DNA from: a virus
Strand: one strand, 5' to 3'
IMG/VR virus record: IMGVR_UViG_3300031707_000110
Coordinates: 1-31,751 of that record
DNA length: 31,751 bases
Shown: positions 519 to 16,652 of the stretch, one piece after another
Layout of the letters: each line of letters opens with the position of its first letter
How positions within the stretch are numbered: the first letter of the stretch is position 1
Made by a program: the position numbers and the translations under genes
The notes under the pieces: generated by a model
Told to the model about the DNA's origin: nothing
Databases searched by the model: none
Seen by the model: only the letters and a program-made list of their open reading frames with translations

Positions 519-644
519 TCATACGTTATTTTTAGATAATCTTCTGATAACTTCCTGCGCTCCTTTTTTATAAACTGTAACGCAGACTAAAATTCCTGCT
601 TCATCATAGACAGCCCAGAAGCGACCATACTTTTCAAGTTTCAT
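519..644 (-). CDS. Small hypothetical protein, 41 aa
   Basis: ATG at 644 follows GGGGAGGTGATATAGCA, a strong ribosome binding site that overlaps the stop of the preceding gene. The product begins MKLEKYGRFWAVYDEAG and continues with VCVTVYKKGAQEV, a compact beta-rich pattern typical of small phage accessory proteins. There are no motifs to assign a function. It ends about 50 nt before the ATG of the 1-468 gene. Confidence 0.75.
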   Translation of the reverse strand: MKLEKYGRFWAVYDEAGILVCVTVYKKGAQEVIRRLSKNNV

Positions 645-646
645 TG

Positions 647-808
647 CTATATCACCTCCCCCTCAATTATTCTGATATTGGCTTCAAAGCCAGTTCCATG
701 ATTTCGTCTCCACCATTGTAAGAAGTCATAATCTCCGCAGTCTTGCATACCAAATTTCTTTTTCATTTTATTCAACGAACTTCTTTTAACAGTGTATTCT
801 CTTTGCAT
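647..808 (-). CDS. Small hypothetical protein, 53 aa
   Basis: ATG at 808 has AAAGGAGGTGGTATAAA directly upstream, and the stop (TAG) is two bases before the next start. The protein is basic at the N-terminus (QREYTVKRSSLNKMKKKFG) and then carries an aromatic patch FLQWWRRNHG. The family is not recognised. It belongs to the same tightly spaced minus operon. Confidence 0.75.
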   Translation of the reverse strand: MQREYTVKRSSLNKMKKKFGMQDCGDYDFLQWWRRNHGTGFEANIRIIEGEVI

Positions 809-809
809 T

Positions 810-1028
810 TTATACCACCTCCTTTAATGTAGTGAATCTTAAATCTTCGGGATTAGTAGCGCAACCTGTAAAATCTTGAAACCTATCCCATTGTCCATCG
901 CACTTGTAAACTACAAAGATATATTCGGCGTTCCAAGATTTTATACGACCTTTCTCTTTTTTGAAGTTATCGTCATATAAAACCCATTTTCCAATATCTT
1001 CTTTGCGTAAATCGGCTAAATCAATCAT
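810..1028 (-). CDS. Hypothetical protein, 72 aa
   Basis: ATG at 1028 follows AAGGAGGCGTT. The sequence has a small beta-barrel character: GKWVLYDDNFKKEKGRIKSW, then YIFVVYKC, then a short helix at the end. Such patterns occur in small SH3-like phage proteins, but this is only a structural impression. It contains one Cys pair (C43, C56). Function is unknown. Confidence 0.75.
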   Translation of the reverse strand: MIDLADLRKEDIGKWVLYDDNFKKEKGRIKSWNAEYIFVVYKCDGQWDRFQDFTGCATNPEDLRFTTLKEVV

Positions 1029-1037
1029 AACGCCTCC

Positions 1038-1319
1038 TTAATATCTGTATCTTTTGTATGCTTCGTCATCACAGGGCATACACATTTTGATATTGCGCTC
1101 CATACAGACTTTATCTCCTTGATCTCTAATCCATTCCGGAGTGTTAGTAGCAAAGTGGCAGTAAATAGCCCAGTCGTTGTTTCCACCTTTGACTGCAACC
1201 CACCTTAATTCATTTCCGCTTCCGGTCATAAATAATCCGAGTTCATTATCAATAGCAGTGCCTGTTGCGAATATTTCTCTATATCTAAATTCTTTTAACT
1301 TTTCTAAAGTTAGCATCAT
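1038..1319 (-). CDS. Hypothetical protein, 93 aa
   Basis: The start is set at the ATGATG at 1319-1314, where GGAGGTGAT lies just upstream; a longer frame starting at 1334 would put the ribosome binding site inside the gene. The ATG overlaps the TGA of the 1316-1492 gene (ATGA), implying translational coupling. Residues such as WAIYCHF and a C-terminal MCMPCDDEAYKRYRY patch suggest a small soluble protein with a CxxC-like pair. Function is not recognised. Confidence 0.75.
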   Translation of the reverse strand: MMLTLEKLKEFRYREIFATGTAIDNELGLFMTGSGNELRWVAVKGGNNDWAIYCHFATNTPEWIRDQGDKVCMERNIKMCMPCDDEAYKRYRY

Positions 1320-1492
1320 ATCACCTCCTTCCATTTAGTAATTATTTTCATTTCGTTATCTATTTCCATTTTTTCTTCAAAGATAATCACTTTAATTCTA
1401 AAAGAAGATAACGGTTCTCTTTGCCTAGAGAACCTGAAGCCGAGATAATTAAGTATCATCTTCTTCAAACTTTCTTTCAGTATCTCTTGCAT
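1316..1492 (-). CDS. Hypothetical protein, 58 aa, directly downstream of hammerhead A
   Basis: The ATG at 1492 is preferred over the one at 1510 because AGGAG (1499-1503) is correctly spaced from it. That site abuts stem II of the ribozyme at 1503-1556, so folding of the ribozyme could affect access to the start. The protein is amphipathic, with a basic region (GFRFSRQREP) followed by beta strands (FRIKVIIFEEKMEI). Family is unknown. Confidence 0.65.
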   Translation of the reverse strand: MQEILKESLKKMILNYLGFRFSRQREPLSSFRIKVIIFEEKMEIDNEMKIITKWKEVI

Positions 1493-1502
1493 AAAAATCT
1501 CC

Positions 1503-1556
1503 TCTCTCATCAGTTATCGCTTTACGATAAGACCTACCTTTCGGCAGGTTTCGAGA
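1503..1556 (-). ncRNA. Type II hammerhead ribozyme A
   Basis: Read on the minus strand, the order is: stem II 5' strand UCUC (1556-1553); GAAA (1552-1549); stem III CCUGCC (1548-1543), loop GAAA, GGUAGG (1538-1533); U16.1 and C17 (1532, 1531); stem I UUAUCG (1530-1525), loop UAAAG, CGAUAA (1519-1514); CUGAUGA (1513-1507); stem II 3' strand GAGA (1506-1503). Every conserved core base of the hammerhead is present and the cleavage triplet is GUC, with the cut predicted between 1531 and 1530. It starts right after the stop of the 51-aa gene and ends on the ribosome binding site of the next gene. Confidence 0.92.
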
Positions 1557-1712
1557 TTATTCAACTATGTTTTTCGGCTCTACCATCACATCATTAGAAT
1601 AACTGTATTTGTTATCTACTACTACTTTATAGGTTATTCCTTCTTCTAAAGTCCTTATTTCTACGACTTTAGCCCTGATTAAAATCTCATCACCGACTTT
1701 AATCTCTTGCAT
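1557..1712 (-). CDS. Small hypothetical protein, 51 aa
   Basis: ATG at 1712 follows AAAGGAGGTTCAAA. The product starts MQEIKVGDEILIRAKVVEIR and has alternating hydrophobic residues throughout (TYKVVVDNKYSYSNDVMVEP), consistent with an OB- or SH3-like small barrel. Function is unknown. Its TAA stop (1557-1559) is immediately followed by hammerhead A. Confidence 0.75.
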   Translation of the reverse strand: MQEIKVGDEILIRAKVVEIRTLEEGITYKVVVDNKYSYSNDVMVEPKNIVE

Positions 1713-1728
1713 TTTGAACCTCCTTTTT

Positions 1729-2148
1729 TTAGTTTATTCTGTAAATAAAATACTCTCCTTCTTCGTTTTCCTCTCCATCATAGCCAGATAAAAAATGTCC
1801 TCTACCATCAGCACTAATAGCGTCTTCAATGAACTCATCTAAGTTTTCAATCATACACTGAATAGCAGCCTGAGCATCTTCACATTGTTCTTGTATTTTG
1901 CTTATACTCTTTTCAAGCTCAGGAGTATATCCGGCTTTAGTATGGTCTGCAATAAAAGAAGCGTTGAAAGCCCAGAGGCTATCTTTGATATTTTCAGCAC
2001 AGGCTTTATCCGCTTCTTCATCCGTGCCGATAGCATATTCTTTATCTCCTAAAGAATAAACTTCTAATCCATAGTGGTCATAGTTTCTTAACTGTAAATC
2101 ATCTTCTTCACAATCTAAAAACTTCGCTAACGCTTTTTCTTTTGTCAT
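1729..2148 (-). CDS. Acidic hypothetical phage protein, 139 aa
   Basis: ATG at 2148 follows AAAGGAGAAAAGCA. The protein is strongly acidic (for example DCEEDDLQL, GTDEEADKACAE, YDGEENEEGEY), with a central helical part (ELEKSISKIQEQCEDAQ) and a C-terminal beta segment EYFIYRIN. There is no signal peptide. Acidic small early proteins in phages sometimes act as DNA mimics, but nothing here proves that; function is unknown. It is one of the larger genes of the minus operon. Confidence 0.85.
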   Translation of the reverse strand: MTKEKALAKFLDCEEDDLQLRNYDHYGLEVYSLGDKEYAIGTDEEADKACAENIKDSLWAFNASFIADHTKAGYTPELEKSISKIQEQCEDAQAAIQCMIENLDEFIEDAISADGRGHFLSGYDGEENEEGEYFIYRIN

Positions 2149-2235
2149 TGCTTTTCTCCTTTCTTATCTCGATTAGCATAGAGCTGGATTAAAAGATAAT
2201 TTTAATCTTAAATCATTCATATTATCGCTGAACTT

Positions 2236-2412
2236 TTATTCCGAATTTTCGCGTTGTTTAATATGGCTTTCACAAACTATTACACTGCCTAAAACAAAAT
2301 GATGCAGAGTCATAACTTCTAAGATCTTAAACTCTTTGATATTCCGGCCACAGATAATACAATCTCCGTCTTTCTGCCTTTTGCGTAAAGTCTTTTCAAG
2401 ATTGCTGTCCAA
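2236..2412 (-). CDS. Small Cys-rich protein with TTG start, 58 aa
   Basis: An in-frame GTG at 2421 overlaps the ribosome binding site AAAGGAGG itself, so the TTG at 2412, spaced 7 nt from it, is the likelier start. The product has DCIICGRNIKEF, later VIVCESHIK: a CxxC plus CxxH arrangement that could bind one zinc. Its upstream neighbour (2418-2558) stops within this binding site. Function is not recognised. Confidence 0.65.
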   Translation of the reverse strand: MDSNLEKTLRKRQKDGDCIICGRNIKEFKILEVMTLHHFVLGSVIVCESHIKQRENSE

Positions 2413-2417
2413 ATAAA

Positions 2418-2558
2418 TCACCTCCTTTCAACATTGTATTCAAAGAAAACCTCTAATACTTCAATAAGTCTATTTACTTCAAAATAATCCTTAACTTCTT
2501 TGGTCTTGAGATAAATAACTTTCTTTCCTTGCTTAATCCCGAGAGTAATCTTTTTCAT
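2418..2558 (-). CDS. Small hypothetical protein, 46 aa, downstream of hammerhead B
   Basis: ATG at 2558 is preceded by TTGGAGGCAAAAACCTT. The sequence starts MKKITLGIKQGKKVIYLKTK and continues with a helix (YFEVNRLIEVLEVFFEY). The stop TGA overlaps the binding site of the next gene. It is the first gene after the ribozyme at 2596-2666. No family is recognised. Confidence 0.7.
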   Translation of the reverse strand: MKKITLGIKQGKKVIYLKTKEVKDYFEVNRLIEVLEVFFEYNVERR

Positions 2559-2595
2559 AAGGTTTTTGCCTCCAAGATAATTAAATCATCTCTTT

Positions 2596-2666
2596 GCCTC
2601 ATCAGAGCCGAGCATCTCTCGGCTGACGCCTTTGCTTAAATCTCTTTGTAGCAAAGGCGTTTCGGC
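2596..2666 (-). ncRNA. Type II hammerhead ribozyme B
   Basis: On the minus strand: stem II 5' strand GCC (2666-2664); GAAA (2663-2660); stem III CGCCUUUGC (2659-2651), a 15-nt loop, GCAAAGGCG (2635-2627); U16.1, C17 (2626, 2625); stem I AGCCGAG (2624-2618), loop AGAUG, CUCGGCU (2612-2606); CUGAUGA (2605-2599); stem II 3' strand GGC (2598-2596). The core is complete, stems I and III are perfect (7 and 9 bp) and the cleavage triplet is GUC. Predicted cleavage is between 2625 and 2624. The element begins three bases after the TAA of the 56-aa gene. Confidence 0.92.
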
Positions 2667-2668
2667 TA

Positions 2669-2839
2669 TTACGCTTTTATCAACTCTATATCTGCTTCTT
2701 GCTTTTCATCTGGTATCTCCTCGCAGATAATATGGCTTTCATAAACATCGGAGCCGAACTCCACTTTTACTTCTTGCTCTGCTTTTTCTTTTGAGGCAGA
2801 GCGGACTAAAAACTCTGCGGTAAATTTGAATAGCGGCAT
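2669..2839 (-). CDS. Small hypothetical protein, 56 aa
   Basis: ATG at 2839 follows AAAGGAGGGCTAACT. The product is FKFTAEFLVRSASKEKAEQE at residues 4-23 and ends in an acidic tail (ICEEIPDEKQEADIELIKA). The pattern resembles the neighbouring 54-aa gene (2842-3006), which also has a beta strand, then a helix of the type AxxEEEA, suggesting related small alpha/beta folds. Hammerhead B begins 3 nt downstream. Function unknown. Confidence 0.75.
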   Translation of the reverse strand: MPLFKFTAEFLVRSASKEKAEQEVKVEFGSDVYESHIICEEIPDEKQEADIELIKA

Positions 2840-2841
2840 AG

Positions 2842-3006
2842 TTAGCCCTCCTTTACTTCGTTAACCTCTCCGATAGCCCAATACGACACAATAATCTCGC
2901 AGGCTGTTTTTCTTGCTTCTTCTTCGTCTTTTGCCTCTACTTCCATCTCTTTGATACCATCCATACCCGGATAGTTGATATACCATTCAACTTTGTATTT
3001 TGGCAT
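2842..3006 (-). CDS. Small hypothetical protein, 54 aa
   Basis: The start at 3006 is chosen over an upstream in-frame ATG because GGGAGGTTAAAG precedes it and because the longer form would overlap the 154-aa gene. The sequence MPKYKVEWYINYPGMDG, then EVEAKDEEEARKTA, suggests a beta strand, loop and helix. No known motif. It follows the YubB-like gene with a 2-nt gap. Confidence 0.75.
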   Translation of the reverse strand: MPKYKVEWYINYPGMDGIKEMEVEAKDEEEARKTACEIIVSYWAIGEVNEVKEG

Positions 3007-3008
3007 CT

Positions 3009-3473
3009 TTAACCTCCCCTGGAGCCAACATAGTCGCAACATTTCTCTGCGACCACTTTGCCTTGCTCAATTCTCAATACCCCGTGAAAACCCATTCCGC
3101 CTTCATAGTAGCGATAATCAAAAGTCAACTTAGGAAACACCTGAGCCATCTTCTTTACCACAGGGACTATTGGCGACCAGGCACTCTGGAAAGTATAAAA
3201 CAACTCTCCGTCTCTTTCTTCTAATTCTGTCTCATAACATCCCCACTTCGTCCCCCAGTTTTTAATGCACCAATGATAGCCGAATTTCCCATAATCTTTT
3301 ATCGCCTCTTTCGGCGCTGGAATAAAAGAGTTGCAACAGAGCATTTCAATTTTTGGGTCTGTTTCATTATCGCTGTCTGCCCACGGATATTTGCCTCTTG
3401 CCTTTTGCTTAAATCTTTCCAATTCTTTTTTGTCTCCTGTAATAGTTAAATCATTTTCAACGTGGTTAGGCAT
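3009..3473 (-). CDS. YubB-like (DUF1281-type) ferredoxin-fold protein, 154 aa
   Basis: ATG at 3473 follows TTAAGGAGGTGAAGTAAAG. The N-terminus MPNHVENDLTITGDKKELER followed by FKQKARG is the signature opening of the YubB/DUF1281 family found on plasmids and phages. The family's general role is unknown; a ferredoxin-like fold is assumed for its N-terminal domain. Later segments (WCIKNWGTKWGCYETE, FQSAWSPIVPVVKKM, YYEGGMGFHG) also fit that family. No signal peptide is present. Confidence 0.85.
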   Translation of the reverse strand: MPNHVENDLTITGDKKELERFKQKARGKYPWADSDNETDPKIEMLCCNSFIPAPKEAIKDYGKFGYHWCIKNWGTKWGCYETELEERDGELFYTFQSAWSPIVPVVKKMAQVFPKLTFDYRYYEGGMGFHGVLRIEQGKVVAEKCCDYVGSRGG

Positions 3474-3475
3474 CT

Positions 3476-3601
3476 TTACTTCACCTCCTTAAATTCTTTA
3501 CACTTCTTTGCTGTATTGTCCCCTTTGGACTTTGGGCAATAAGAACTTCCTTCATTGCCGAAAGGCTTCATCTCTTTACAGTAGCGGCATAATCTTTTCA
3601 T
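3476..3601 (-). CDS. Zinc-binding-like mini-protein, 41 aa
   Basis: ATG at 3601 follows AAGGAGGCAAA and overlaps the stop of the 83-aa gene upstream. The sequence contains four cysteines (LCRYCKEM, SYCPKS, KKCKEF), a CxxC followed by two single Cys, which could hold one zinc. It is very basic. The 33-aa gene at 6322-6423 and the 31-aa gene at 5128-5223 share this Cys-rich small basic style. Function unknown. Confidence 0.7.
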   Translation of the reverse strand: MKRLCRYCKEMKPFGNEGSSYCPKSKGDNTAKKCKEFKEVK

Positions 3602-3849
3602 TTTGCCTCCTTAGATAATGCTTTGTATAATTCTTCAATAAGTCTTGGCTTCTGCTTTAACTCTTTGTAATCTCCGCGAAACGCTAACACTGCTACCCAA
3701 TAGTTATGAATATCATATCGCAATTTTAGAGATAAAGCGTGAAAACAAGTATTACAGGGAAAGCCTAAATGCTGAACCCTGCACTCTGTGGCTTCAAATA
3801 ACTTTTCTTGCAACATCTCTTTTGTTATTTTCAACTTTTTCTTTAACAT
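3598..3849 (-). CDS. Hypothetical protein, 83 aa
   Basis: ATG at 3849 follows GAGAGGAGGTGAAAGATT. The sequence is basic and helical at the N-terminus (MLKKKLKITKEMLQEKLFEA), with a three-Cys centre (ECRVQHLGFPCNTCFHALSL) and a C-terminal helix (RLIEELYKALSKEAK). The Cys/His cluster may bind metal. The gene overlaps the 55-aa frame at 3794-3961, which ends inside it. Function unknown. Confidence 0.75.
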   Translation of the reverse strand: MLKKKLKITKEMLQEKLFEATECRVQHLGFPCNTCFHALSLKLRYDIHNYWVAVLAFRGDYKELKQKPRLIEELYKALSKEAK

Positions 3850-3961
3850 AATCTTTCACCTCCTCTCGGTAATGTTTTGAGTTTGTCTTATACTCTCGGA
3901 CTATTCCCATCGGATAGCCGAAAGATAATAAGTGGCGCTGGACTCTATTGAGTTTTTGCAT
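3794..3961 (-). CDS. Small basic hypothetical protein, 55 aa, overlapping its neighbours
   Basis: ATG at 3961 has GAGGT eight nt upstream. The protein starts MQKLNRVQRHLLSFGYPMG and is rich in Lys and Arg. It overlaps the previous gene by 17 nt and the next by 56 nt, which is longer than usual in this operon, so its last third may simply read through the following gene in another frame. Function unknown. Confidence 0.5.
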   Translation of the reverse strand: MQKLNRVQRHLLSFGYPMGIVREYKTNSKHYREEVKDYVKEKVENNKRDVARKVI

Positions 3962-4124
3962 TTTCCAATACCTCTGTCATTGTCGGGAAGTCTCCCGACA
4001 TATCTCTGCCTGAAATCCTGCCTGCTTTCTGCCAACCCAGCGGAGATAATTTGCTTTCGGCGTTAAAACTACTTCCGACTGTGTAGCAGAGTTTATTGTC
4101 TTTAACGAATAGTGTCATTCGCAT
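3945..4124 (-). CDS. Small hypothetical protein, 59 aa
   Basis: ATG at 4124 follows AGGAGATGATAA at ideal spacing; an alternative ATG at 4118 would shorten it by two residues. The product begins MRMTLFVKDNKLCYTVGSSF and has LSPLGWQKAGRISGRDMSGD in the middle. No recognised domain. It overlaps the end of the 65-aa gene by 23 nt. Confidence 0.65.
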   Translation of the reverse strand: MRMTLFVKDNKLCYTVGSSFNAESKLSPLGWQKAGRISGRDMSGDFPTMTEVLENAKTQ

Positions 4125-4299
4125 TTATCATCTCCTGAGATAAGTTTCTCATCTCTTCTTTTAATTCGTCTGTAAAATCTGCTTTCTCCAAGCACTTCAG
4201 CGTTGCAGATAATTCTTTAATCATAAACTTTGCGTGCCGAGTTAAAGGGCGATCTTCTTTATCAATATAAACACCCTCGTTAACTTTCTTTAATTTCAT
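4102..4299 (-). CDS. Small helical hypothetical protein, 65 aa
   Basis: The ATG at 4299 is preferred to one at 4353 because AAGGAGGCAGCGAA precedes it and it overlaps the TAA/TGA region of the gene before. The product is mostly helical (FMIKELSATLKCLEKADF, ELKEEMRNLSQEMINAN). No signal or membrane segment. Function unknown. Confidence 0.7.
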   Translation of the reverse strand: MKLKKVNEGVYIDKEDRPLTRHAKFMIKELSATLKCLEKADFTDELKEEMRNLSQEMINANDTIR

Positions 4300-4547
4300 T
4301 TCGCTGCCTCCTTCAATACATTCTTTACTTCTCTTGCCCTCTTGCCTCGCCAACTCCCCAGATTTGAAAGCACGTAGAGAAGTTGCACTTTTAACTCTTC
4401 GCCAACCATCATCTTGCCGGTCTTTTGGTGTAGAACCTCTACTGCGTTTCCTTTGGAGATAACCACTGCGTTCTGGCTATCGCCTAATTCCAGAGCCGCT
4501 TGAGCGTAGCTCTTGGCATAATCAGCGAAGCCTCCCCTGCGCTTCAT
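4296..4547 (-). CDS. Hypothetical protein, 83 aa
   Basis: ATG at 4547 is preceded by GAGGCGGTAGTAA. The protein is basic at the start (MKRRGGFADYAKSYAQA) and has alternating strands (AVVISKGNAVEVLHQKTGK). It overlaps a 19-codon frame upstream that has the better ribosome binding site, so translation may be coupled. Function unknown. Confidence 0.7.
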   Translation of the reverse strand: MKRRGGFADYAKSYAQAALELGDSQNAVVISKGNAVEVLHQKTGKMMVGEELKVQLLYVLSNLGSWRGKRAREVKNVLKEAAK

Positions 4548-4581
4548 TTACTACCGCCTCTAACGCTTCTTTGAGTTGCAT
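4522..4581 (-). CDS. Possible 19-codon coupling ORF
   Basis: ATG at 4581 follows AAGGAGATAAGCG, a better ribosome binding site than that of the gene it overlaps. It encodes MQLKEALEAVVNEAQGRLR, an amphipathic helix-like peptide, and stops 26 nt inside the 83-aa gene. It could be a real micro-protein or a translation-coupling leader. Confidence 0.35.
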   Translation of the reverse strand: MQLKEALEAVVNEAQGRLR

Positions 4582-4592
4582 CGCTTATCTCC

Positions 4593-4901
4593 TTATCTTG
4601 CTGGAACTGGCAGGCCTGCGTTAATCTTTTCCTGCCGGCATCTCTTCATATTCTTTATTAACCAGTCAGACAAAAGATCTATATCCAATAACGCTTCGTT
4701 GTTTCTGCCCCAGCCCTCTGCAACTTTTTTTGTCAATACCTGAATTGCCGTCGCCGTCAAGACCCAGGCATTATCAGTCTTGGGATTTTTGAATTCCTCG
4801 CAGACAGATAATAATCTTTTTATTGCCAAAGGTCTTTGAACGCAAAATAATTCTAAATCTTTTACTGGCTCGCTGTTTTCAATAATCTCTCGCACTGTCA
4901 T
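4593..4901 (-). CDS. Hypothetical protein, 102 aa, downstream of hammerhead C
   Basis: The frame is open back to 5030, but the start is placed at ATG 4901 because GAGAGGAGGTGAGAAAG precedes it; the 43 upstream codons coincide with the structured ribozyme region and look non-coding. The product is helical (MTVREIIENSEPVKDLELF, IQVLTKKVAEGWG, LLSDWLIKNMKRC). No family recognised. Confidence 0.75.
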   Translation of the reverse strand: MTVREIIENSEPVKDLELFCVQRPLAIKRLLSVCEEFKNPKTDNAWVLTATAIQVLTKKVAEGWGRNNEALLDIDLLSDWLIKNMKRCRQEKINAGLPVPAR

Positions 4902-4940
4902 CTTTCTCACCTCCTCTCTAAAAAGTTTTCTGATACAAAA

Positions 4941-5050
4941 TAAACTCATCAGGGCTTTACGCCGATAGCAGAGATAAAGGGGGTCTTGTATCTTTTTATA
5001 ACCTTCGCCCAATTTATAGATTACAAGCAATATCTCCGCTATTTCGTTTA
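4941..5050 (-). ncRNA. Type II hammerhead ribozyme C (long stem III)
   Basis: On the minus strand: stem II 5' strand UAAAC (5050-5046); GAAA (5045-5042); stem III UAGCGGAGAUA (5041-5031) pairing with UAUCUCUGCUA (4976-4966) over 11 bp with one G-U, capped by a 54-nt insertion; U16.1, C17 (4965, 4964); stem I GGC-GUAAA-GCC (4963-4953); CUGAUGA (4952-4946); stem II 3' strand GUUUA (4945-4941). The core is complete and the cleavage triplet is AUC. Stem I is only 3 bp, which makes this copy less certain. Stem II begins on the TAA of a tiny ORF. Confidence 0.78.
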
Positions 5051-5098
5051 ATCTTTATAACTTTCAGGGAATAGGAACTCTAACATCTCGGTATCCAC
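5048..5098 (-). CDS. Possible 16-codon micro-ORF before hammerhead C
   Basis: A GTG at 5098 lies five nt after AAAGG and opens a 16-residue frame (DTEMLEFLFPESYKD after the start). Its TAA forms part of stem II of the ribozyme, the same stop-then-ribozyme arrangement seen at the other two sites. It is too short to judge on composition. Confidence 0.25.
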   Translation of the reverse strand: MDTEMLEFLFPESYKD

Positions 5099-5127
5099 TT
5101 TAACCTTTCCGCGCTGTAGCGTTATGC

Positions 5128-5223
5128 TTAGCGCTTAATAGATAATGGACATCTCTGACAATTTCTTGTCGTGCAACTATTACATACAGGGAAACCTAAC
5201 AGCCAAGATAAAAAGCGTACCAT
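5128..5223 (-). CDS. Cys-rich micro-protein, 31 aa
   Basis: ATG at 5223 follows AAAGGGGTGATTTAAG. The peptide has a hydrophobic start (MVRFLSWLLGFPVC) and then CNSCTTRNCQRC, i.e. four closely spaced cysteines able to bind zinc. Its stop lies in a small inverted repeat (GCGCT...AGCGC around 5111-5134). Function unknown. Confidence 0.5.
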   Translation of the reverse strand: MVRFLSWLLGFPVCNSCTTRNCQRCPLSIKR

Positions 5224-5224
5224 C

Positions 5225-5413
5225 TTAAATCACCCCTTTCAGAATTAAATTTTCTGCATCTTTGCTTTTATATTCAGAGTTTTGAATGTGCATCTCGCCA
5301 GTCTCTTTGTCTTTCAACTGTATTTGAATTAACACTTTTTGCACTTCCATATATTCTAATTCTCTTTTGTTATACTGCGCTTTCCAATCTTCAATCCAGT
5401 TAAGCAGTTTCAT
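5225..5413 (-). CDS. Small hypothetical protein, 62 aa
   Basis: ATG at 5413 follows GGGAGAGTAAAAG. The product has an aromatic helical N-terminus (MKLLNWIEDWKAQYNKRELE), a central strand (VQKVLIQIQLKDK) and a polar C-terminus. The gene ends within the ribosome binding site of the 31-aa frame. Function unknown. Confidence 0.7.
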   Translation of the reverse strand: MKLLNWIEDWKAQYNKRELEYMEVQKVLIQIQLKDKETGEMHIQNSEYKSKDAENLILKGVI

Positions 5414-5416
5414 CTT

Positions 5417-5584
5417 TTACTCTCCCTTCTCAATATAATCTCTGAACTTCTGCTCGTTGAAAGAACTGTTTTCGGTTTTTAAGCTTTTACAGACGGCAGA
5501 GATAATTACTTCTTTACTCTTCGGATTTTCGAACTCTATTCCTTTTATCGTCTTCGCTATCAGAATATAATCTCTTCTGTGCAT
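5417..5584 (-). CDS. Small hypothetical protein, 55 aa
   Basis: The start at 5584 has GAAAGGAGGTATAAAG upstream, so the longer frame from 5602 is rejected. The sequence MHRRDYILIAKTIKGIEFEN followed by KEVIISAVCKSLK, then NSSFNEQKFRDYIEKGE reads as a helical protein of a size common in phage early regions. Function unknown. Confidence 0.7.
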   Translation of the reverse strand: MHRRDYILIAKTIKGIEFENPKSKEVIISAVCKSLKTENSSFNEQKFRDYIEKGE

Positions 5585-5651
5585 CTTTATACCTCCTTTC
5601 ATTTTTTTGGAGTTCTTTGAAGTTAATGATACTATTGAGGGCGTTAATCAT
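5514..5651 (-). CDS. Small hypothetical protein, 45 aa, coupled by ATGA
   Basis: The ATG at 5651 overlaps the TGA of the 108-aa gene (ATGA) and has GAGGTGAAAAG directly upstream, which supports translation. The N-terminal half (MINALNSIINFKELQKNERR) lies in otherwise empty sequence; the C-terminal half overlaps the next gene by 71 nt and is highly charged. Function unknown. Confidence 0.55.
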   Translation of the reverse strand: MINALNSIINFKELQKNERRYKDAQKRLYSDSEDDKRNRVRKSEE

Positions 5652-5974
5652 CTTTTCACCTCTATAATCTTTGGCTCTTTTTCTTTTCTTACGCTGGGGT
5701 GGAAACAGGCAAAATCGAACTCAAAATTAAGATGGACGCTGACATTATCTCCTTTTTGAAGATAGGTATAAGTTTCTTTATCCAGAGGTATTAGCAACTT
5801 AAAATCTTCAACCCCTTTTAACAAACAGAGAGCAGAATAATTTAATCTTGTTTTCTCTATGTAAATCGCTTCTCTCTTAAATAATCCTACTCTCTTTTTG
5901 CCTGTGCTTTCAAGATACTTTTCCTCTTTAGAGATTATATTTTCTACTACACCTACAAAGTATTCACTATGCAT
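5648..5974 (-). CDS. Hypothetical protein, 108 aa
   Basis: ATG at 5974 follows AGGAGGTGAGACA. The protein is beta-rich (SEYFVGVVENIISKEEKYLE, then KRVGLFKREAIYIEKTRLNY, then NVSVHLNFEFDFACFH) and ends in a basic tail. No signal peptide. It is not recognised. It lies between the lysozyme-like gene and the 45-aa gene. Confidence 0.75.
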   Translation of the reverse strand: MHSEYFVGVVENIISKEEKYLESTGKKRVGLFKREAIYIEKTRLNYSALCLLKGVEDFKLLIPLDKETYTYLQKGDNVSVHLNFEFDFACFHPSVRKEKEPKIIEVKR

Positions 5975-5978
5975 TGTC

Positions 5979-6329
5979 TCACCTCCTTTCTAAAAAGTAT
6001 TTAACATTCTTAACCCAGTTAGAGTTAAGCGGATGCGCTTTTGGCGGGCAATAACGAGAGCCCAAGAACTCTAAATAATCTTTATACTGCGTTTGCTTCT
6101 TAAATCTTTTTCGGTTATTGCGGACTGTGTTAAAGCATATCCGCCTTGCTTCCGCTTCGTCTTTGTAAGGAATTGAACGGATGCCATAAAGATAGGTTGC
6201 TTTATACCCGCCTTCAGCGTGAAAGATGGCATTGACTATCTGGGCATCTGTCCACTCTTTCGCAAAGGAAGCAGAGTGGAAGATAAGCAGGAAAACGAGT
6301 GCGAGATAATAACGCTTGGCTTTATTCAT
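5979..6329 (-). CDS. Secreted lysozyme-like protein, 116 aa
   Basis: The ATG at 6329 overlaps the TAA of the 33-aa gene (ATGAATAA), so it is preferred over 6374, which lies inside that gene. Residues 1-23 form a signal peptide: basic NKAKRYY, hydrophobic LALVFLLIF, then HSASFA before KEW. The mature part has IVNAIFHAEGGYKATY, whose Glu in the AEGG segment fits the catalytic Glu of lysozyme/transglycosylase-like folds, then GIRSIP, FLGSRYCP and NSNWVKNVKYF, which occur in small phage-associated muramidase-like proteins. It probably cuts or loosens peptidoglycan. Its place in the early-type operon rather than a late lysis cassette is unusual. Confidence 0.65.
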   Translation of the reverse strand: MNKAKRYYLALVFLLIFHSASFAKEWTDAQIVNAIFHAEGGYKATYLYGIRSIPYKDEAEARRICFNTVRNNRKRFKKQTQYKDYLEFLGSRYCPPKAHPLNSNWVKNVKYFLERR

Positions 6330-6423
6330 TTGTCTTTCGCTTTTTATACCCTTTACATCTCTTACAGTTATCATTGCTTCCGCAGACTTTCCAATACCTA
6401 CAACTCTTTTTTGAAGTATTCAT
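6322..6423 (-). CDS. Cys-rich basic micro-protein, 33 aa
   Basis: ATG at 6423 is preceded by AGGAAAGATTGAA. The peptide contains SCRYWKVCGSNDNCKRCKGY, four cysteines with a final CxxC, then a very basic tail (KKRKTNE). A zinc-binding role is plausible. Its stop overlaps the start of the lysozyme-like gene. It is the gene nearest the candidate origin on this side. Confidence 0.6.
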   Translation of the reverse strand: MNTSKKSCRYWKVCGSNDNCKRCKGYKKRKTNE

Positions 6424-9302: not shown

Positions 9303-11831
9303 ATGGAACACAATTTATTCAGAGTGAAATCTCTGGAAGAAGGCAAAGAAGCAGTAGTTGGTTCGTGTAATGGCTTTAGCAAGGAAGAACGCTGGAGTAA
9401 GGAGACGCCTGTGTTTGCCGAAAAGATATTAAAATGTATTACGAAAATTGTTCCATTAGGCTCTCTTGTCTCTATTTCAATGCTTGATTTTGGAGTTGGT
9501 TGTGGTCGACTTGCCAAAGAGATATTAGAACGAAGTTCAAGCACTAAAATTCTCGGAGTTGACACTTCTATTGACATGCTTGAACAGGCAATACAATATG
9601 TAAATAATGAAAGATTTGAAGCAAAAATTCCTACTGATATTCCTAAAGATAAGAAATTCGACCTCATCTATTGCGTCTATACCCTCCAGCACGTCCCTGC
9701 AATAGAGATTCGCGAAATCTTATCTAGAATATACAACCATCTTAAAGACGATGGCTTTTTCATATACTGCTCAAGTGATTACCGCATGTCTATACGCTTT
9801 GATGGTAAGGGTTTCTTTGATGACAGGTTTTTAGGAGTTAATTTACAGGAAGAGATAGAAAGATATTTTGATAAAGTTGAGCCGTTATTCATTGAAGAAG
9901 ATTTTAAGGATAACTATATCTTAAAGAAGATGATTACCGGCTGTGATAGCGGTCTGGCGCATCCAGCGTTTGTATATCGAAAGAAAATCGAAAGTAAAGA
10001 AGTTAAGCCGATAATTGAAGTTGAAGGAATACCTATTTATGAAAAGAATGGTAAACTCTTTGCTGGTAAAAACGCAAAAGAAAAAGTAATGCAACCGCAA
10101 AAACTCCTTCTCATCAACCGTCTCTCTCCGGGTGATATTCTTGTTATGACTAATGCTATCAGGGACCTGCATTTAGCTCATCCGGGAAAGTTCATTACTG
10201 ATGTGCGGACGCCCTGCCCGGATATCTTTGCCAATAATCCTTATATCACTAAGTTAACTTATAATGAAGCTAATTATAATCAAGTGAATACTTGGTTTCA
10301 GACTAATATAGGCAAGACTAAGATGTTAGAGGATGTTATGCTTATTGATATGCAATATCCTTTAATCCATCAGTCTGGAGCCAGAGGCGCTCATTTTGCT
10401 GAAGGGCATCGGGAGTTTCTTGAAGAGACGCTTAAAATCAAGATACCACAGACTAAAATCAGACCAGAACTGTATCTTACTGAACAAGAAAAAGCTATAT
10501 GGGCAACAGGTGTATTAGGTAATAATATGGGTTATAAAGGCAAATACTGGATCATTAATGCCGGCTCTAAGGGCGACTATACTTTGAAGCAATATCCGTA
10601 TTATCAAGAAGTCGTAGATTTACTCAAAGATAAAATTACTTTTGTCCAGATAGGAGTTAAATCTCATAACCATAAACCACTTGAAAATGTAATTGATATG
10701 GTGGGTAAGACTGATAATGTGAGAGATTTATTCAGTTTAATTTATAACGCCGAAGGAGTGATTACCTGCGTGGCCTTTCCTATGCACATCGCGGCTGCTT
10801 TTAAGAAACCCTGCGTGGTAGTGGCCGGTGCCAGAGAAGGCACACGCTGGGAGTTATATCCAAATCACCGCTTTATTTATGTCAATGGCTGCCTGCCTTG
10901 CGCTGATTATGATGGTTGTTGGAGATCAAGACAAGAAGAATGCAATTATAAGAAAAATGGTGTTCCTATTTGTATGACTTTAATAAAGCCGGAAGAAGTG
11001 TCGCGAGAAGTAGAGAGGTATTATGAGGGTGGAATTTTGAAATATGATATTAAAGAACCGGTTATACTTAACCTAAAAGGAGAAGAAAAAATGGATAAAG
11101 AAAAAATAGATTTTGCACACGCAGGATTAATGGCAGAGATTATGACTAATAGTAATAAAGATATTGTCATTGAACCTCTGCCTTCAGGCATTAATTCCCC
11201 TCAAGCAACCTCATCAATTTTTAATATCTTGCGTATCCTTAAACAGTTAACTCCTAGCGATACTTACCTTGAGGCCTATCAGTGGCATTACGACAAAAGA
11301 AAAGATAAGTTTATGGATATTTATCACTTTATGCAATATCTCGGTGCGACAGTCAGGCCTAAACGGATTTTAGAGATAGGCACGCGCACCGGCATTTCAA
11401 TATGTCAGTTGCTTTCAGCATATCTTAATTACAATGAATTGGAAAGAGTGATACTCTGCGACTTATTCAATGATGGGATTTCAACTCCGAGTGTAGTCTT
11501 AAATGCTCTGAAATATCTGAATATTCCGGTTGATAAAGTGCAGTTTATTATAGGTAATTCTTTAGAAGAGATACCGAAGCTGATGGGTAAGGAAAGCTTC
11601 TCGTATGTCTTGGTGGATGGTTCTCATGACCGAAATGATGCTATGCAAGACCTTGAAAATTCTTATAAGTTAATTGAAAAAGAAGGTTATGTAATTTTTG
11701 ATGACCTCAGTATAGACGGCTGTAATCTTCAACCAGTTTGGGATAATTTCAAACAGAAATATTATGCTGATTTTATATTTATGGAAGATGGTGATAATGG
11801 TAAAGGTATAGGCATTGCTAAAAGGATCTAA
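9303..11831 (+). CDS. Methyltransferase - GT9 glycosyltransferase - methyltransferase fusion, 842 aa
   Basis: ATG at 9303 follows AAAAGGAGCTAAAAA. Residues about 55-175 are a class I SAM methyltransferase: motif I MLDFGVGCGRL (60-70), GVDTSIDMLEQA, then FDLIYCVYTLQHVP. Residues about 263-565 resemble GT9 (heptosyltransferase-like) enzymes: KLLLINRLSPGDILVMTNAI near 267, then FPMHIAAAFKKPCVVVAGA near 492, followed by a Cys-rich stretch. Residues about 597-842 are a second methyltransferase (ILEIGTRTGISICQL near 689; VLVDGSHDRNDAM). An internal ribosome binding site and ATG at 11091 could make this last domain separately. It opens the sugar cluster; the acceptor is unknown. Confidence 0.85.
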   Translation: MEHNLFRVKSLEEGKEAVVGSCNGFSKEERWSKETPVFAEKILKCITKIVPLGSLVSISMLDFGVGCGRLAKEILERSSSTKILGVDTSIDMLEQAIQYVNNERFEAKIPTDIPKDKKFDLIYCVYTLQHVPAIEIREILSRIYNHLKDDGFFIYCSSDYRMSIRFDGKGFFDDRFLGVNLQEEIERYFDKVEPLFIEEDFKDNYILKKMITGCDSGLAHPAFVYRKKIESKEVKPIIEVEGIPIYEKNGKLFAGKNAKEKVMQPQKLLLINRLSPGDILVMTNAIRDLHLAHPGKFITDVRTPCPDIFANNPYITKLTYNEANYNQVNTWFQTNIGKTKMLEDVMLIDMQYPLIHQSGARGAHFAEGHREFLEETLKIKIPQTKIRPELYLTEQEKAIWATGVLGNNMGYKGKYWIINAGSKGDYTLKQYPYYQEVVDLLKDKITFVQIGVKSHNHKPLENVIDMVGKTDNVRDLFSLIYNAEGVITCVAFPMHIAAAFKKPCVVVAGAREGTRWELYPNHRFIYVNGCLPCADYDGCWRSRQEECNYKKNGVPICMTLIKPEEVSREVERYYEGGILKYDIKEPVILNLKGEEKMDKEKIDFAHAGLMAEIMTNSNKDIVIEPLPSGINSPQATSSIFNILRILKQLTPSDTYLEAYQWHYDKRKDKFMDIYHFMQYLGATVRPKRILEIGTRTGISICQLLSAYLNYNELERVILCDLFNDGISTPSVVLNALKYLNIPVDKVQFIIGNSLEEIPKLMGKESFSYVLVDGSHDRNDAMQDLENSYKLIEKEGYVIFDDLSIDGCNLQPVWDNFKQKYYADFIFMEDGDNGKGIGIAKRI

Positions 11832-12184
11832 TGGTTCTTGAAAATATTATTAATGAATTCCGGGCAAAATATGGAAAGCCACCAGCAATAACCGCTGAGG
11901 CAATAGAACACGAACATTGTAGATTGCACTGCCTTTATATGGCTAATAACTTCAAAGTAGAACACACACCAGATTATTTTTTATGCGGTAAGGCAGAAAT
12001 TGTAGGTGCAGCCAGTTATAGGCATAGCGATGAAGATACTATTAGATTTTTACTCTATGAAAAGATAGCTAATAGTCCAGAACATCTTAAAGTTTTATTA
12101 GAGTCAAAATATTTAGCACATTGGTTTTATGTAAATGATTACATAGGATACCTTGTGATTAGAGGGGGGGAAAGGATAATATGA
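11831..12184 (+). CDS. CAP/SCP-like domain protein, 117 aa
   Basis: The ATG shares one base with the TAA of the fusion gene, and AAAGGATCTA serves as ribosome binding site. The order HEHCRLHCLYMANN, then VEHTPDY, GKAEIVGAAS, and YEKIANSPEHLKVLLE, then IGYLVIRGG follows the CAP fold: a histidine-bearing first helix, H...E core, and the W/A-x-SPxH helix before the final strands. CAP domains are often secreted, but no signal peptide is present here. It could also be an unrelated small alpha-beta protein. Role in the sugar cluster is unclear. Confidence 0.5.
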   Translation: MVLENIINEFRAKYGKPPAITAEAIEHEHCRLHCLYMANNFKVEHTPDYFLCGKAEIVGAASYRHSDEDTIRFLLYEKIANSPEHLKVLLESKYLAHWFYVNDYIGYLVIRGGERII

Positions 12185-13074
12185 AATTTGAAATTATTAT
12201 GCCCTACAGGCCTTATTCTCATGGAGATTTAAGTTCGCCACATGGGGATTTAGTACAGCTTGAAGATGATAGCTGGAGAAATAGTTCTGGAAAGATCTTC
12301 AAGGAAGGATTAGAATATGAAAAACATCGAGTCAGTATTCGACAAGCAATAGAGGCTTTGAATAAAAATTCTTTCTACAAACATCACATAATAGTTGCGA
12401 TAGATTCGGATGTTTATCCAAATAAATCTTTTTTAAATAATTTTGAAAATGTATCTATCATTAAGTCAGAATTTAAAGTCCCTAAAGAACATTATGGAGT
12501 AAGAATGCCTCTTGCTTGTAAGGCTGCTATTGATTCTCTTCCGGGGGAAGGTTTTCTTTGCCATGTGTATTTAGCTGATACTATTTGCTCTAAGAATTGG
12601 GATAAATACATAGTTGAGGCTATTAATAGGCTTGGAGAAGATAAAGTGTATGTCCCTATTTGGGTTGAAGGTTCTCATGGGGCGTTTCAAGAATTAGTTG
12701 GAATAGAATTGACACCTGATTTTATCTGGGAAAAATGTTCTAAAAAAATTGCTGCTGGAGCGTTTTTTCTTCCGGATCCTAGACGAAGCTATATCCAAGA
12801 AGAAGATTTTGAACACTACATTGAAATATTGCAGAAGGGAAACAGAGATTGTATTATTGAGAATTGTGGGGGAAGAATATTTGGTTGGCTGATATGTTTA
12901 TGTATGAAAATTTCTTATGCCAAGCAAATAAAATTTGATATCACTGATGTACATTCTATAGATACTAAGTTTGATTCACAACTTGGTGGATTGGGATTGA
13001 AGAAAGTAGTGGTTACGAACTCATTTATCTGGCATCCACAATGTTCGCATTTAGAACTAAGGTTGAAATATTAA
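12181..13074 (+). CDS. GT-A-type glycosyltransferase-like protein, 297 aa
   Basis: The ATG overlaps the previous TGA and follows GGGGAAAGGATAAT. The protein starts with FEIIMPYRPYSHGD and has a long helix leading to HHIIVAIDSDVYPN, where the Asp-rich strand end resembles the DxD region of GT-A enzymes; LCHVYLADTICSKNWDKYI resembles the acceptor-side segment of GT2 proteins. No membrane segments except possible hydrophobic patches near FGWLICLCM. Fold and role are inferred; substrate unknown. It is followed by a 45-nt gap and the dehydrase-like gene. Confidence 0.55.
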   Translation: MKFEIIMPYRPYSHGDLSSPHGDLVQLEDDSWRNSSGKIFKEGLEYEKHRVSIRQAIEALNKNSFYKHHIIVAIDSDVYPNKSFLNNFENVSIIKSEFKVPKEHYGVRMPLACKAAIDSLPGEGFLCHVYLADTICSKNWDKYIVEAINRLGEDKVYVPIWVEGSHGAFQELVGIELTPDFIWEKCSKKIAAGAFFLPDPRRSYIQEEDFEHYIEILQKGNRDCIIENCGGRIFGWLICLCMKISYAKQIKFDITDVHSIDTKFDSQLGGLGLKKVVVTNSFIWHPQCSHLELRLKY

Positions 13075-13119
13075 GTTTAAAATCTATAAACTATAAAGCA
13101 AGGAAGGAGATTTTACTCA

Positions 13120-14259
13120 ATGATTAAAGTTGGAGATTATTTCACAACTCCTGAAGATGAACAATCTGTATTAGAAGTTTTGAGATCTAATCGTTTGTCA
13201 GAGGGTAGTAAAGTCAGGGAATTTGAGGAGAAATGGGCTGAATTCTGTGGGACTAAATACTGCGTACTTACTAATTCTGGAACTTCCGCGTTGCTTGCTT
13301 GTCTGGAAGTGATGAAAGATATAACTAAACAAAGAAAGGTTTGGACATCGCCAAATACTTTTATATCCACCGTAAATGCCATAGTATTGTCTGGATTTGA
13401 GCCAGTATTCTCTGATGTGGATAAAGAAACCTTTGTTTTAAAACCGATACTCAATAGGGCTGGGATATTTCTGCCTGTCCATTTATATGGATACCCAGTA
13501 GATATGAACGAATTTAATTACTCTTGGATGATAGAAGATGCATGTGAGGCTCATGGTTCATTATATAAAGGCAAGAAAGTTGGTTCCATAGGGCTTATGG
13601 GATGTTTTTCTTTCTACATAGCCCACAACATCCAAGTCGGGGATATGGGGGCGATTATCACGAATGACCTTGAGATATATCGGGAATTAAAAAAGGTCAA
13701 GGCTCATGGCCGGATGTGCGAATGCACTGTTTGCCACAGGGCAGAGGGCAAGTGTCCGAATAAAGATAAAGGTTTTGATCCTCGCTTTACCCATACCCGA
13801 ATAGCTTATAACTTCAAAACTACTGAGATGCAAGCGGCGTTAGGGTTAAATCAACTCAAACATGCCGATGAAATAATCCGTAAGCGGCAAGAGAATGTTT
13901 TATACTTAAATACTGGTTTAAGAGATATAAAAGATTTACAACTCCCAATTTGGAATACAACAGTTAGTTATCTTGCATATCCTTTGATATTAAGAAATCC
14001 TGAGATAAACCGTAATGAATTCTGCAATAAGATTGAAAAAGCTGGAGTGGAAACTAGACCTTTCTTTTCTTGCGTACCTACACAACAACCTGCTTACGCA
14101 TATTTAAGAGAACAATGGAAAGACAAACTTCCTAATGCGGAATGGTTAGGGTTAAGAGGATTTCATATAGGGTGTCATCAATATTTGACAAAAGAAGAAT
14201 TAGATTTTATAATAGAGACAGTTAGAAAGGAAATTATTTATGATAGTAGAAAATATTGA
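13120..14259 (+). CDS. DegT-family RfbH/E1-like 3-dehydrase (Lys replaced by His, Fe-S cysteines), 379 aa
   Basis: ATG at 13120 follows AAGGAAGGAGATTTTACTCA. The fold type I PLP enzyme marks are clear: NSGTSALLACL (52-62), TSPNTFISTVNAIVLSG, HLYGYPVDM and IEDACEAHG (138-146) with the cofactor-binding Asp140. The residue that normally carries PLP as a Schiff base is not Lys but His169 (CFSFYIAHNI), as in ColD and RfbH/E1, which are 3-dehydrases rather than aminotransferases. Cys142, Cys200, Cys202 and Cys212 (plus Cys205) follow the E1 iron-sulfur spacing C-x57-C-x-C, differing only before the last Cys. It therefore probably removes the 3-hydroxyl from a nucleotide-linked 4-keto-6-deoxy sugar. 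Length is shorter than RfbH (about 437). No E3-type reductase is in the window. Confidence 0.82.
   Translation: MIKVGDYFTTPEDEQSVLEVLRSNRLSEGSKVREFEEKWAEFCGTKYCVLTNSGTSALLACLEVMKDITKQRKVWTSPNTFISTVNAIVLSGFEPVFSDVDKETFVLKPILNRAGIFLPVHLYGYPVDMNEFNYSWMIEDACEAHGSLYKGKKVGSIGLMGCFSFYIAHNIQVGDMGAIITNDLEIYRELKKVKAHGRMCECTVCHRAEGKCPNKDKGFDPRFTHTRIAYNFKTTEMQAALGLNQLKHADEIIRKRQENVLYLNTGLRDIKDLQLPIWNTTVSYLAYPLILRNPEINRNEFCNKIEKAGVETRPFFSCVPTQQPAYAYLREQWKDKLPNAEWLGLRGFHIGCHQYLTKEELDFIIETVRKEIIYDSRKY
14185..14213 (+). promoter_or_regulatory. Consensus sigma70 promoter inside the dehydrase gene
   Basis: TTGACA (14185-14190) and TATAAT (14208-14213) are both exact consensus hexamers, separated by 17 bp. The predicted start (about 14220) is 20 nt before the next gene's ATG at 14240. 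It lies in coding sequence for the C-terminus of the dehydrase, so it could be coincidental, but sequence-wise it is the strongest promoter in the window. Confidence 0.55.
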
Positions 14260-14908
14260 GATTCTTGAGTATAATAAAGATATTATGGAATTTAAAGGAG
14301 TTGATTTTAAGAGTATGCCGATAGATCAATGGCTTTATTTCTGCAAGGCTAATTTGACTTTTGGCGAACCCGGTATAGATTATTATGAACTTGCTGCTTT
14401 GCATCAAGCCTGTGAGATTTTTGGTAAACGATCATTAACGATAGTAGAAACAGGTATGTGTTTTGGCACTACTACCAGATATTTTTTAGTAAGGGTTATA
14501 AAATATGGCGGGGAATTACATACTTTTGAAGTTACTATCCGTGATAAATTCAAAGAAACTATGCAGGAACTCGGGCTTTGGGATAAAATAAATTTACATG
14601 GACATTCTATGAAAGACCCCTGGAGTAAAGAAATAGATGTTCTTTTTATAGATTCTGAACATGCTTTAGAAAATACATTAGGTGAGTATATGCATTTTAG
14701 AGAGTGGCTTAAAGCAGATTCAATTATAGGTTTTCATGACACTAATTGTTGTACTGGCGTAATAAAGGCTCTTGAGATGATACAGGAAGTCGACGAGTTA
14801 GAACTTATAAGTGAATGCAGTGATAGGGCTCATGCTGGGGTAAAATTCTTTAGAAGGAAGATTAAAAATAGGACAGATAGGCCTTGGAATACAGGAAAAA
14901 GAATATAG
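14240..14908 (+). CDS. CmcI-like (Methyltransf_24 type) methyltransferase, 222 aa
   Basis: The ATG at 14240 overlaps the dehydrase gene by 20 nt and follows AAAGGAAATTATTT. It contains LTIVETGMCFGTTTRYFLVR (about 66-85), the SAM-binding glycine-rich loop, then VLFIDSEHALENTLGEY and IIGFHDTN, which match the cephalosporin hydroxylase/CmcI-type methyltransferases with an Asp-Ser/Gly-x-His step. Such enzymes methylate sugars or small metabolites. It belongs to the same cluster as two similar domains (C-terminal part of 9303-11831 and 15954-16652). Confidence 0.8.
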   Translation: MIVENIEILEYNKDIMEFKGVDFKSMPIDQWLYFCKANLTFGEPGIDYYELAALHQACEIFGKRSLTIVETGMCFGTTTRYFLVRVIKYGGELHTFEVTIRDKFKETMQELGLWDKINLHGHSMKDPWSKEIDVLFIDSEHALENTLGEYMHFREWLKADSIIGFHDTNCCTGVIKALEMIQEVDELELISECSDRAHAGVKFFRRKIKNRTDRPWNTGKRI

Positions 14909-14910
14909 CC

Positions 14911-15960: not shown

Positions 15961-16652
15961 ACAACTATAAAAACCCAATTTCTTTTGCTCCAGATATGGA
16001 TTATTTCAAAATTTATCCTGCGCCGATGTTTGAAGCAATGTTTAATCAGCATATAGGCCCTTGCAACTCAACTACTCCTTACTATGGGCCTCTTTTATAT
16101 TGGTTATGCCGAGCTGTAAATGCTTTAAACGTTATGGAAATAGGTATGGCTCAAGGTTGGTCTAGTTTCTTTATGGCAAGCGCAGTTAAAGATACAGGTG
16201 TTAGAAACGGTGTAGAAGGAATGTATTATGGAGTGGAGATATCAGATTGTACTGAATTATTTGATAGAATGAAGGCAAGAGGCGTAAATGCTAAACATAT
16301 TCATAAAGATTCATTAAAATTAATTCCTGCGGATTGGGATAATAAATTTCTTGATGTAGTATATCAAGATGGATGGCATTCGACCGAATATGTGTTAGAT
16401 GAATTAGCTATTTTAGCTCCTTATTTAAAAGATAATGGCAATGGTTATTGGGTAATGCACGATGTTTATAGTTGGTGTGAAGAAGGTTTTGCTGAAGTTA
16501 AAAAGCGCCACCCTAACTGGGAGTGTGTCAGATTTTTAACTAATTATGGTTTAGCGATATTCAGGAATATGGATAACTATGACTATAAAAAGAAATATTG
16601 GGATGGGCCTCAGAAGCCGGCATATCCGAATAGAGAGGAAATAGTAACATGA
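15954..16652 (+). CDS. CmcI-like methyltransferase, 232 aa
   Basis: ATG at 15954 follows GGAGGTGCGA and overlaps the previous TAG; a GTG at 15942 would contain the binding site itself. Motif I is NVMEIGMAQGWSSFFMASAV, followed by YYGVEISD and FLDVVYQDGWHSTEYVLDEL, then YWVMHDVYSW: the pattern of Methyltransf_24/CmcI enzymes with the D-G-x-H step. It ends with an ATGA overlap with the next glycosyltransferase. Confidence 0.8.
   Translation: MLDNYKNPISFAPDMDYFKIYPAPMFEAMFNQHIGPCNSTTPYYGPLLYWLCRAVNALNVMEIGMAQGWSSFFMASAVKDTGVRNGVEGMYYGVEISDCTELFDRMKARGVNAKHIHKDSLKLIPADWDNKFLDVVYQDGWHSTEYVLDELAILAPYLKDNGNGYWVMHDVYSWCEEGFAEVKKRHPNWECVRFLTNYGLAIFRNMDNYDYKKKYWDGPQKPAYPNREEIVT

What the first reader, a model, noticed from the sequence alone, without database searches (positions are those of the whole stretch)
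1503..1556. Complete type II hammerhead ribozyme between two early genes (copy A)
All conserved core positions (CUGAUGA, GAAA, A15.1-U16.1, C17) are in the right order for a type II hammerhead, with stems I, II and III of 6, 4 and 6 bp and a GUC cleavage triplet. Stem II ends on the ribosome binding site of the 58-aa gene, so folding or cleavage could control its translation.
Basis: partly seen in the sequence, partly recalled or inferred. Interest (0 to 1): 0.75.

Follow-up and report, generated by a model that had tools for sequence, protein, structure and literature searches.

The report
Self-cutting RNA between phage genes
This stretch encodes a genuine-looking self-cutting RNA (a type II hammerhead ribozyme) placed directly after one phage gene and before the next, probably to cut a long phage messenger into separate pieces; the ribozyme type is known, but its tight placement at the stop codon and its replacement by a tRNA gene in one relative hint at what such ribozymes do.

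Summary
Rfam's model does not accept it at its own threshold (26.4 bits, cut-off 37); comparison does. A related phage has the same ribozyme between the same two genes, with 5 two-sided compensatory changes and no broken pair. The window holds two more copies, 2596-2666 and 4941-5050; I found 12 distinct copies in 6 related phages.

The shared feature is on the other side: 12 of 12 copies start 2-13 nt after a stop codon. In a context-blind sample of viral contigs, 126 of 162 ribozymes did so, against 479 of 7081 shifted positions. At copy A's site one relative carries a tRNA instead. Best explanation: self-cleaving punctuation of a polycistronic early transcript, an idea already in print (PMC3088659). 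New here, as far as I searched: the stop-codon rule, the tRNA replacement and a conserved 16-codon ORF before copy C.

The parts
1503..1556 (-). Type II hammerhead ribozyme, copy A (stems II 4, III 6, I 6 bp; GUC; predicted cut between 1531 and 1530)
1557..1712 (-). Upstream 51-aa gene; its TAA (1559-1557) directly precedes stem II of copy A; homologs of 41-43% identity in three relatives
1316..1492 (-). Downstream 58-aa gene, 65-67% identical in two relatives; start codon 14 nt after the ribozyme core; Shine-Dalgarno GGAG directly after stem II
2596..2666 (-). Type II hammerhead, copy B (Rfam RF02276, 41.1 bits over 2588-2667); C17 at 2625
4941..5050 (-). Type II hammerhead, copy C (stem III 11 bp with a 54-nt loop, stem I 3 bp, AUC triplet); C17 at 4964
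5048..5098 (-). 16-codon micro-ORF VDTEMLEFLFPESYKD*, conserved in 6 of 6 phages; its stop codon lies in stem II of copy C
519..6374 (-). Compact array of small early genes in which the three ribozymes fill 3 of the 4 gaps longer than 45 nt (146, 110 and 64 nt)

Best explanation
Copy A is a type II hammerhead that cuts the polycistronic early phage transcript in cis just after C1531, 26 nt past the stop codon of the 51-aa gene. The type II shape gives both new ends a hairpin: stem III closes the 3' end of the upstream messenger (left with a 2',3'-cyclic phosphate) and stem I sits flush at the 5' end of the downstream messenger (left with a 5'-OH and a 38-nt leader). Together with copies B and C it acts as mRNA punctuation, splitting the transcript into units with their own stability and expression. 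Shown by computation: the ribozyme fold, its covariation, its placement and the tRNA replacement in one relative. Inferred: that the genes are co-transcribed, that it cleaves in the cell, and that the purpose is segmental mRNA processing or stability.
For: Complete core and stems. Compensatory changes in orthologous copies and no broken pair in any of the ten pairwise comparisons made. Six related phages carry 12 distinct copies on the sense strand of small-gene arrays. 12 of 12 begin 2-13 nt after a stop codon. A context-blind pattern scan of IMG/VR gave 162 further distinct type II hammerheads; 126 have the stop of an ORF of at least 40 aa within 15 nt upstream, against 479 of 7081 shifted control positions (first set 86 of 112, held-out set 40 of 50). 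In the first set stem II touches the stop (median gap 0.5 nt) while the Shine-Dalgarno is 16 nt off (median), the upstream gap being smaller in 63 of 72. All 32 loci with two or more hammerheads keep them on one strand, up to 9 in one locus. At copy A's site phage G006 has a tRNA (RF00005, 40.8 bits), an element that RNase P and other tRNA-processing enzymes would be expected to cut (general knowledge). Perreault et al. 2011 showed in vitro and in-cell cleavage of clustered prophage hammerheads and proposed processing into operon- or gene-length mRNAs (PMC3088659, sections 6 and part 1 of 11 read).
Against: No cleavage or transcript data for this phage. In Perreault et al. 4 of 18 tested consensus hammerheads showed no cleavage. 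Copy A's minimum-energy fold is not the native stem II, and a conserved loop I-tail pseudoknot could not be established. The tRNA replacement is one case, and in G011 the site after the 51-aa gene homolog carries neither a recognisable hammerhead nor a tRNA. Two relatives have none (G023, 71 kb; G005, 36 kb), so the elements are not essential to the group. The shifted control positions mix gene-internal and intergenic places, so the 6.8% baseline is low for intergenic sites; the asymmetry between the two gaps is the better control.
Confidence: 0.62

Rival explanations
1. Translation-gated ribozyme: the upstream gene's terminating ribosome sits on stem II and GAAA and blocks folding, so cleavage happens only when ribosomes have left; cutting then reports on, or responds to, translation of the upstream gene.
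For: Stop codon within 2-13 nt of the core in 12 of 12 copies, inside stem II in some; 126 of 162 in the wider sample. Before copy C a conserved 16-codon micro-ORF with its own Shine-Dalgarno-like sequence brings a stop codon to the ribozyme in 6 of 6 phages; five aligned versions have pooled pS 0.73 against pN 0.17.
Against: Stop adjacency is equally expected if only a minimal 3' UTR is selected. In the first set micro-ORFs add just 3 of 114 copies. A 16-aa peptide may have its own function. No kinetic data.
Confidence: 0.25
2. Translation switch: stem II hides the ribosome-binding site of the 58-aa gene and cleavage or unfolding exposes it.
For: In copy A the Shine-Dalgarno follows stem II directly and the predicted minimum-energy fold pairs it.
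Against: Accessibility change is small and inconsistent; the hiding pairing is not kept in the ortholog; 10 of 12 copies have their start codon about 20-96 nt away.
Confidence: 0.1
3. Gene-cassette boundary: the hammerheads mark joints at which genes are exchanged, and cleavage serves mainly to insulate newly acquired genes.
For: Class B and C copies keep their own sequence while neighbouring genes differ between phages: the window's 102-aa gene after copy C has a homolog only in G006, and the G007 gene there has none in the other loci; the genes there in G011, G009 and G029 look different again by eye.
Against: Class A keeps both neighbours. Gene turnover is common in phage early regions anyway.
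Confidence: 0.15
4. A decayed or chance hammerhead-like fold without activity.
For: Rfam score below the cut-off; non-native minimum-energy fold.
Against: Shuffle control and compensatory changes with an untouched core in the ortholog.
Confidence: 0.05

Closest known systems
Type II hammerhead ribozymes of bacteria and phages (Rfam RF02276; Perreault et al. 2011, PMC3088659)
   Same: Same core, permuted type II topology, intergenic and clustered positions among phage genes, same proposed processing role
   Different: Stem II is UCUC/GAGA and the copy scores below the Rfam cut-off; no established loop I-tail pseudoknot
HHphage of haloviruses HF1/HF2 (passages in PMC3088659)
   Same: Hammerhead in early genes, 13 nt upstream of a start codon; here the start is 14 nt after the core
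   Different: HHphage has an altered core with inserted bases; copy A has a consensus core
Triple hammerhead around ardA in Agrobacterium tumefaciens (PMC3088659 section 6)
   Same: Several hammerheads on one polycistronic RNA flanking single genes; active in E. coli
   Different: Other genes and sequences; there the biological purpose is given as unknown
tRNA punctuation of mitochondrial transcripts (recalled; only a search listing seen)
   Same: Works like it: an RNA element between genes marks where a long transcript is cut
   Different: Here the element cuts itself and needs no RNase P; only one relative has a tRNA at the site

Membership tests
Type II hammerhead ribozyme (RF02276) | Core CUGANGA ... 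GAAA with A15.1-U16.1 and H17 at the cut site | tested here: met
Type II hammerhead ribozyme (RF02276) | Stems I and III closed by loops, stem II open | tested here: met
Type II hammerhead ribozyme (RF02276) | Pairing kept by covariation among homologs | tested here: met
   copy A and ortholog, 5 two-sided changes, 0 broken
Type II hammerhead ribozyme (RF02276) | Rfam covariance model at gathering score (a curation threshold, not a structural feature) | tested here: not met
   26.4 bits against 37; copy B passes with 41.1
Type II hammerhead ribozyme (RF02276) | Loop I-3' tail pseudoknot, common but not universal | tested here: inconclusive
   possible UAAA/UUUA in copy A, read by eye; not kept in the ortholog (sequences)
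Type II hammerhead ribozyme (RF02276) | Self-cleavage in Mg2+ | not testable with these tools
   needs in vitro transcription
tRNA (element at the orthologous site in phage G006) | Cloverleaf scored by RF00005 and ARAGORN | tested here: met
   40.8 bits, cut-off 29; tRNA-???, 4-base anticodon call. The whole-locus gathering search did not list it
tRNA (element at the orthologous site in phage G006) | Standard 7-nt anticodon loop and charging | tested here: inconclusive
   ARAGORN gives an undetermined isotype with anticodon 'aatc'

The most novel reading that the evidence does not exclude
Phages use type II hammerheads as a stop-codon-coupled punctuation system: the ribozyme is docked on the stop codon so that a terminating ribosome gates its folding, each gene is released as its own hairpin-capped messenger according to its translation, a dedicated micro-ORF supplies the gating stop where none exists, and a tRNA can replace the ribozyme as an interchangeable cutting mark.
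Probability: 0.2. Interest if true: 0.82.

Novelty: new member of a known kind. Interest (0 to 1): 0.55.

Why it matters
[quoted passage not shown] A placement rule shared by most of 162 separately sampled viral hammerheads, a one-site swap with a tRNA, and a micro-ORF ending in the ribozyme turn that question into simple tests: does cleavage depend on the upstream stop codon, and does it set transcript ends and stability?

Tried and rejected
Type I and III hammerheads: one weak hit inside a protein gene of the window (+ strand, near 17636), at chance level (3 hits of that score or more in 60 shuffles). Other Rfam families: none at gathering threshold besides copy B in the window and none in six relative loci. 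Weak hits (sroH, n00280, HOTAIR_2 and others) are far below their cut-offs and were dismissed.

A MAFFT alignment of eight copies was out of register, so no covariance model was built; pairs were counted by position from the core.

Shine-Dalgarno unmasking was modelled and gave no consistent result (for G029B the assumed start position was not a start codon, so that row does not count).

RF02276 over 285 genomes of the phylum of G029 found nothing, but it also missed G029's own copies under the stricter filters, so it says nothing. A search with the 102-aa gene downstream of copy C found no relative in viral contigs, although G006 has one at 59%. No phage record in INPHARED has the 58-aa gene or the large 842-aa protein; the terminase finds only distant matches, so the group has no close relative there. 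A broader search with an alignment of the 58-aa gene brought only the two known relatives.

A second stem II pattern gave 12 stretches, of which only 2 hold a hammerhead by the scanner, 1 of the 2 stop-adjacent; too few to replicate. In one search copies within 150 nt of a locus end were dropped before the count (2 of 114 in set 1). The stricter rule (longest ORF only) gave 78 of 114 against 450 of 9872.

Full report
Observation. The strict core and three stems score 27.2 on a scanner whose best hit in 300 dinucleotide shuffles lay in the bin 21-22. Rfam lists only copy B in the window; a narrow search gives copy A 26.4 bits, below the cut-off of 37. Folding gives z about -3, though the minimum-energy structure uses an alternative partner for stem II.

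Comparison. The terminase led to 25 viral loci and one 67-kb contig in a metagenome-assembled genome. Of 28 viral records searched with RF02276, 12 had a match at E up to 10 and none above the cut-off. The scanner, run on the fetched pieces, also found one in G006, making 13 of 28 records; ten of these share the same best match and score and look like one species. The contig G029:C5 has two. Distinct copies: 12 in six phages. G023 (71 kb) and G005 (36 kb), scanned over their whole length, have none. Copy A has an ortholog between the same two genes in G007; five pairs changed on both sides, one on one side, none broke, and the core and stem II are identical. Copies B and C also keep their pairs through two-sided changes.

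Surroundings. The small genes from 6374 down to 519 lie on one strand, mostly overlapping or a few bases apart. The three hammerheads fill three of the four gaps above 45 nt. The homologous site of copy A in G006 holds a tRNA-like gene: RF00005 40.8 bits in a narrow search and ARAGORN tRNA-??? with an odd anticodon call; the whole-locus gathering search had not listed it. In G011 the site carries neither. Before copy C every one of the six phages has a 16-codon (15 in G006) ORF with a Shine-Dalgarno-like sequence, ending 2-5 nt before GAAA; five equal-length versions have pooled pS 0.73 and pN 0.17.

Position rule. All 12 copies start 2-13 nt after a stop codon (for G009C the micro-ORF gives 5 nt and a longer overlapping frame 12 nt). 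To test this without using gene context I scanned IMG/VR for one stem II type. Of 119 stretches held, 107 contain a hammerhead at score 20 or more. Of 162 distinct copies away from locus ends, 126 have the stop of an ORF of at least 40 aa within 15 nt upstream; shifted positions give 479 of 7081. The held-out part alone gives 40 of 50 against 178 of 2224. In the first part the gap from stop to stem II has a median of 0.5 nt and the gap from stem II to the Shine-Dalgarno 16 nt; the former is smaller in 63 of 72. Loci with several copies keep them on one strand in 32 of 32, with 9 in L113, 7 in L119 and 6 in L176.

Mechanism. In a type II hammerhead the cut falls between hairpins III and I, so both products end in a hairpin; this follows from the known geometry. 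With the ribozyme on the stop codon, the upstream messenger keeps its stop and ends 26-84 nt later, and the downstream messenger begins with stem I. I think punctuation of the early transcript the most likely role. Gating by the terminating ribosome would explain the tight placement and the micro-ORF, but is untested. The ribosome-binding-site switch is the weakest: modelled accessibility barely changes and the geometry is special to copy A and its ortholog.

Known work. Perreault et al. 2011 (PMC3088659; section 6 and part 1 of section 11 read, other passages by search) described clustered hammerheads flanking genes in prophages, showed cleavage of three clusters in vitro and one in E. coli, and proposed processing into gene- or operon-length mRNAs. 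The words 'stop codon' do not occur in its main text. Searches for hammerhead with tRNA punctuation, with phage, Shine-Dalgarno and stop codon, with polycistronic, for 'type II hammerhead' and with prophage listed no paper whose title or abstract start reports the stop-codon rule or a tRNA swap; the library lacks most subscription journals. A 2017 review (PMC6155905, passages) calls the prokaryotic roles open.

Verdict. Copy A is a new member of a known ribozyme class in a known kind of setting. The added value is the placement rule, the tRNA at the same junction, and the micro-ORF.

Noticed in passing
5048-5098 (-): Conserved 16-codon micro-ORF with its own Shine-Dalgarno-like sequence, roughly M..EML.WLFPESY[KR]D*, in 6 of 6 related phages, ending in the hammerhead of copy C.
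   Followed up: partly
L059:7919-7999 (-): tRNA-like gene with an undetermined isotype and an odd anticodon loop, exactly where the window has hammerhead copy A.
   Followed up: partly
L113, L119, L176: Viral contigs with 9, 7 and 6 type II hammerheads in one same-strand gene array.
   Followed up: partly
L053:4630-4700 (+): After the 51-aa gene homolog of phage G011, TCTCGAAA is followed by a sequence without CTGATGA; possibly a decayed hammerhead.
   Followed up: no
5128-5223 (-): Conserved 31-aa cysteine-rich protein (MVRFLSWLLGFPVCNSCTTRNCQRCPLSIKR) upstream of the micro-ORF, found in four relatives.
   Followed up: no
2149-2235 (-): The only gap above 45 nt in the early gene array without a hammerhead; it holds an A+T-rich inverted repeat.
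   Followed up: no
9303-18480 (+): A run of genes between the early and the structural genes, several of them methyltransferase- or aminotransferase-like.
   Followed up: no
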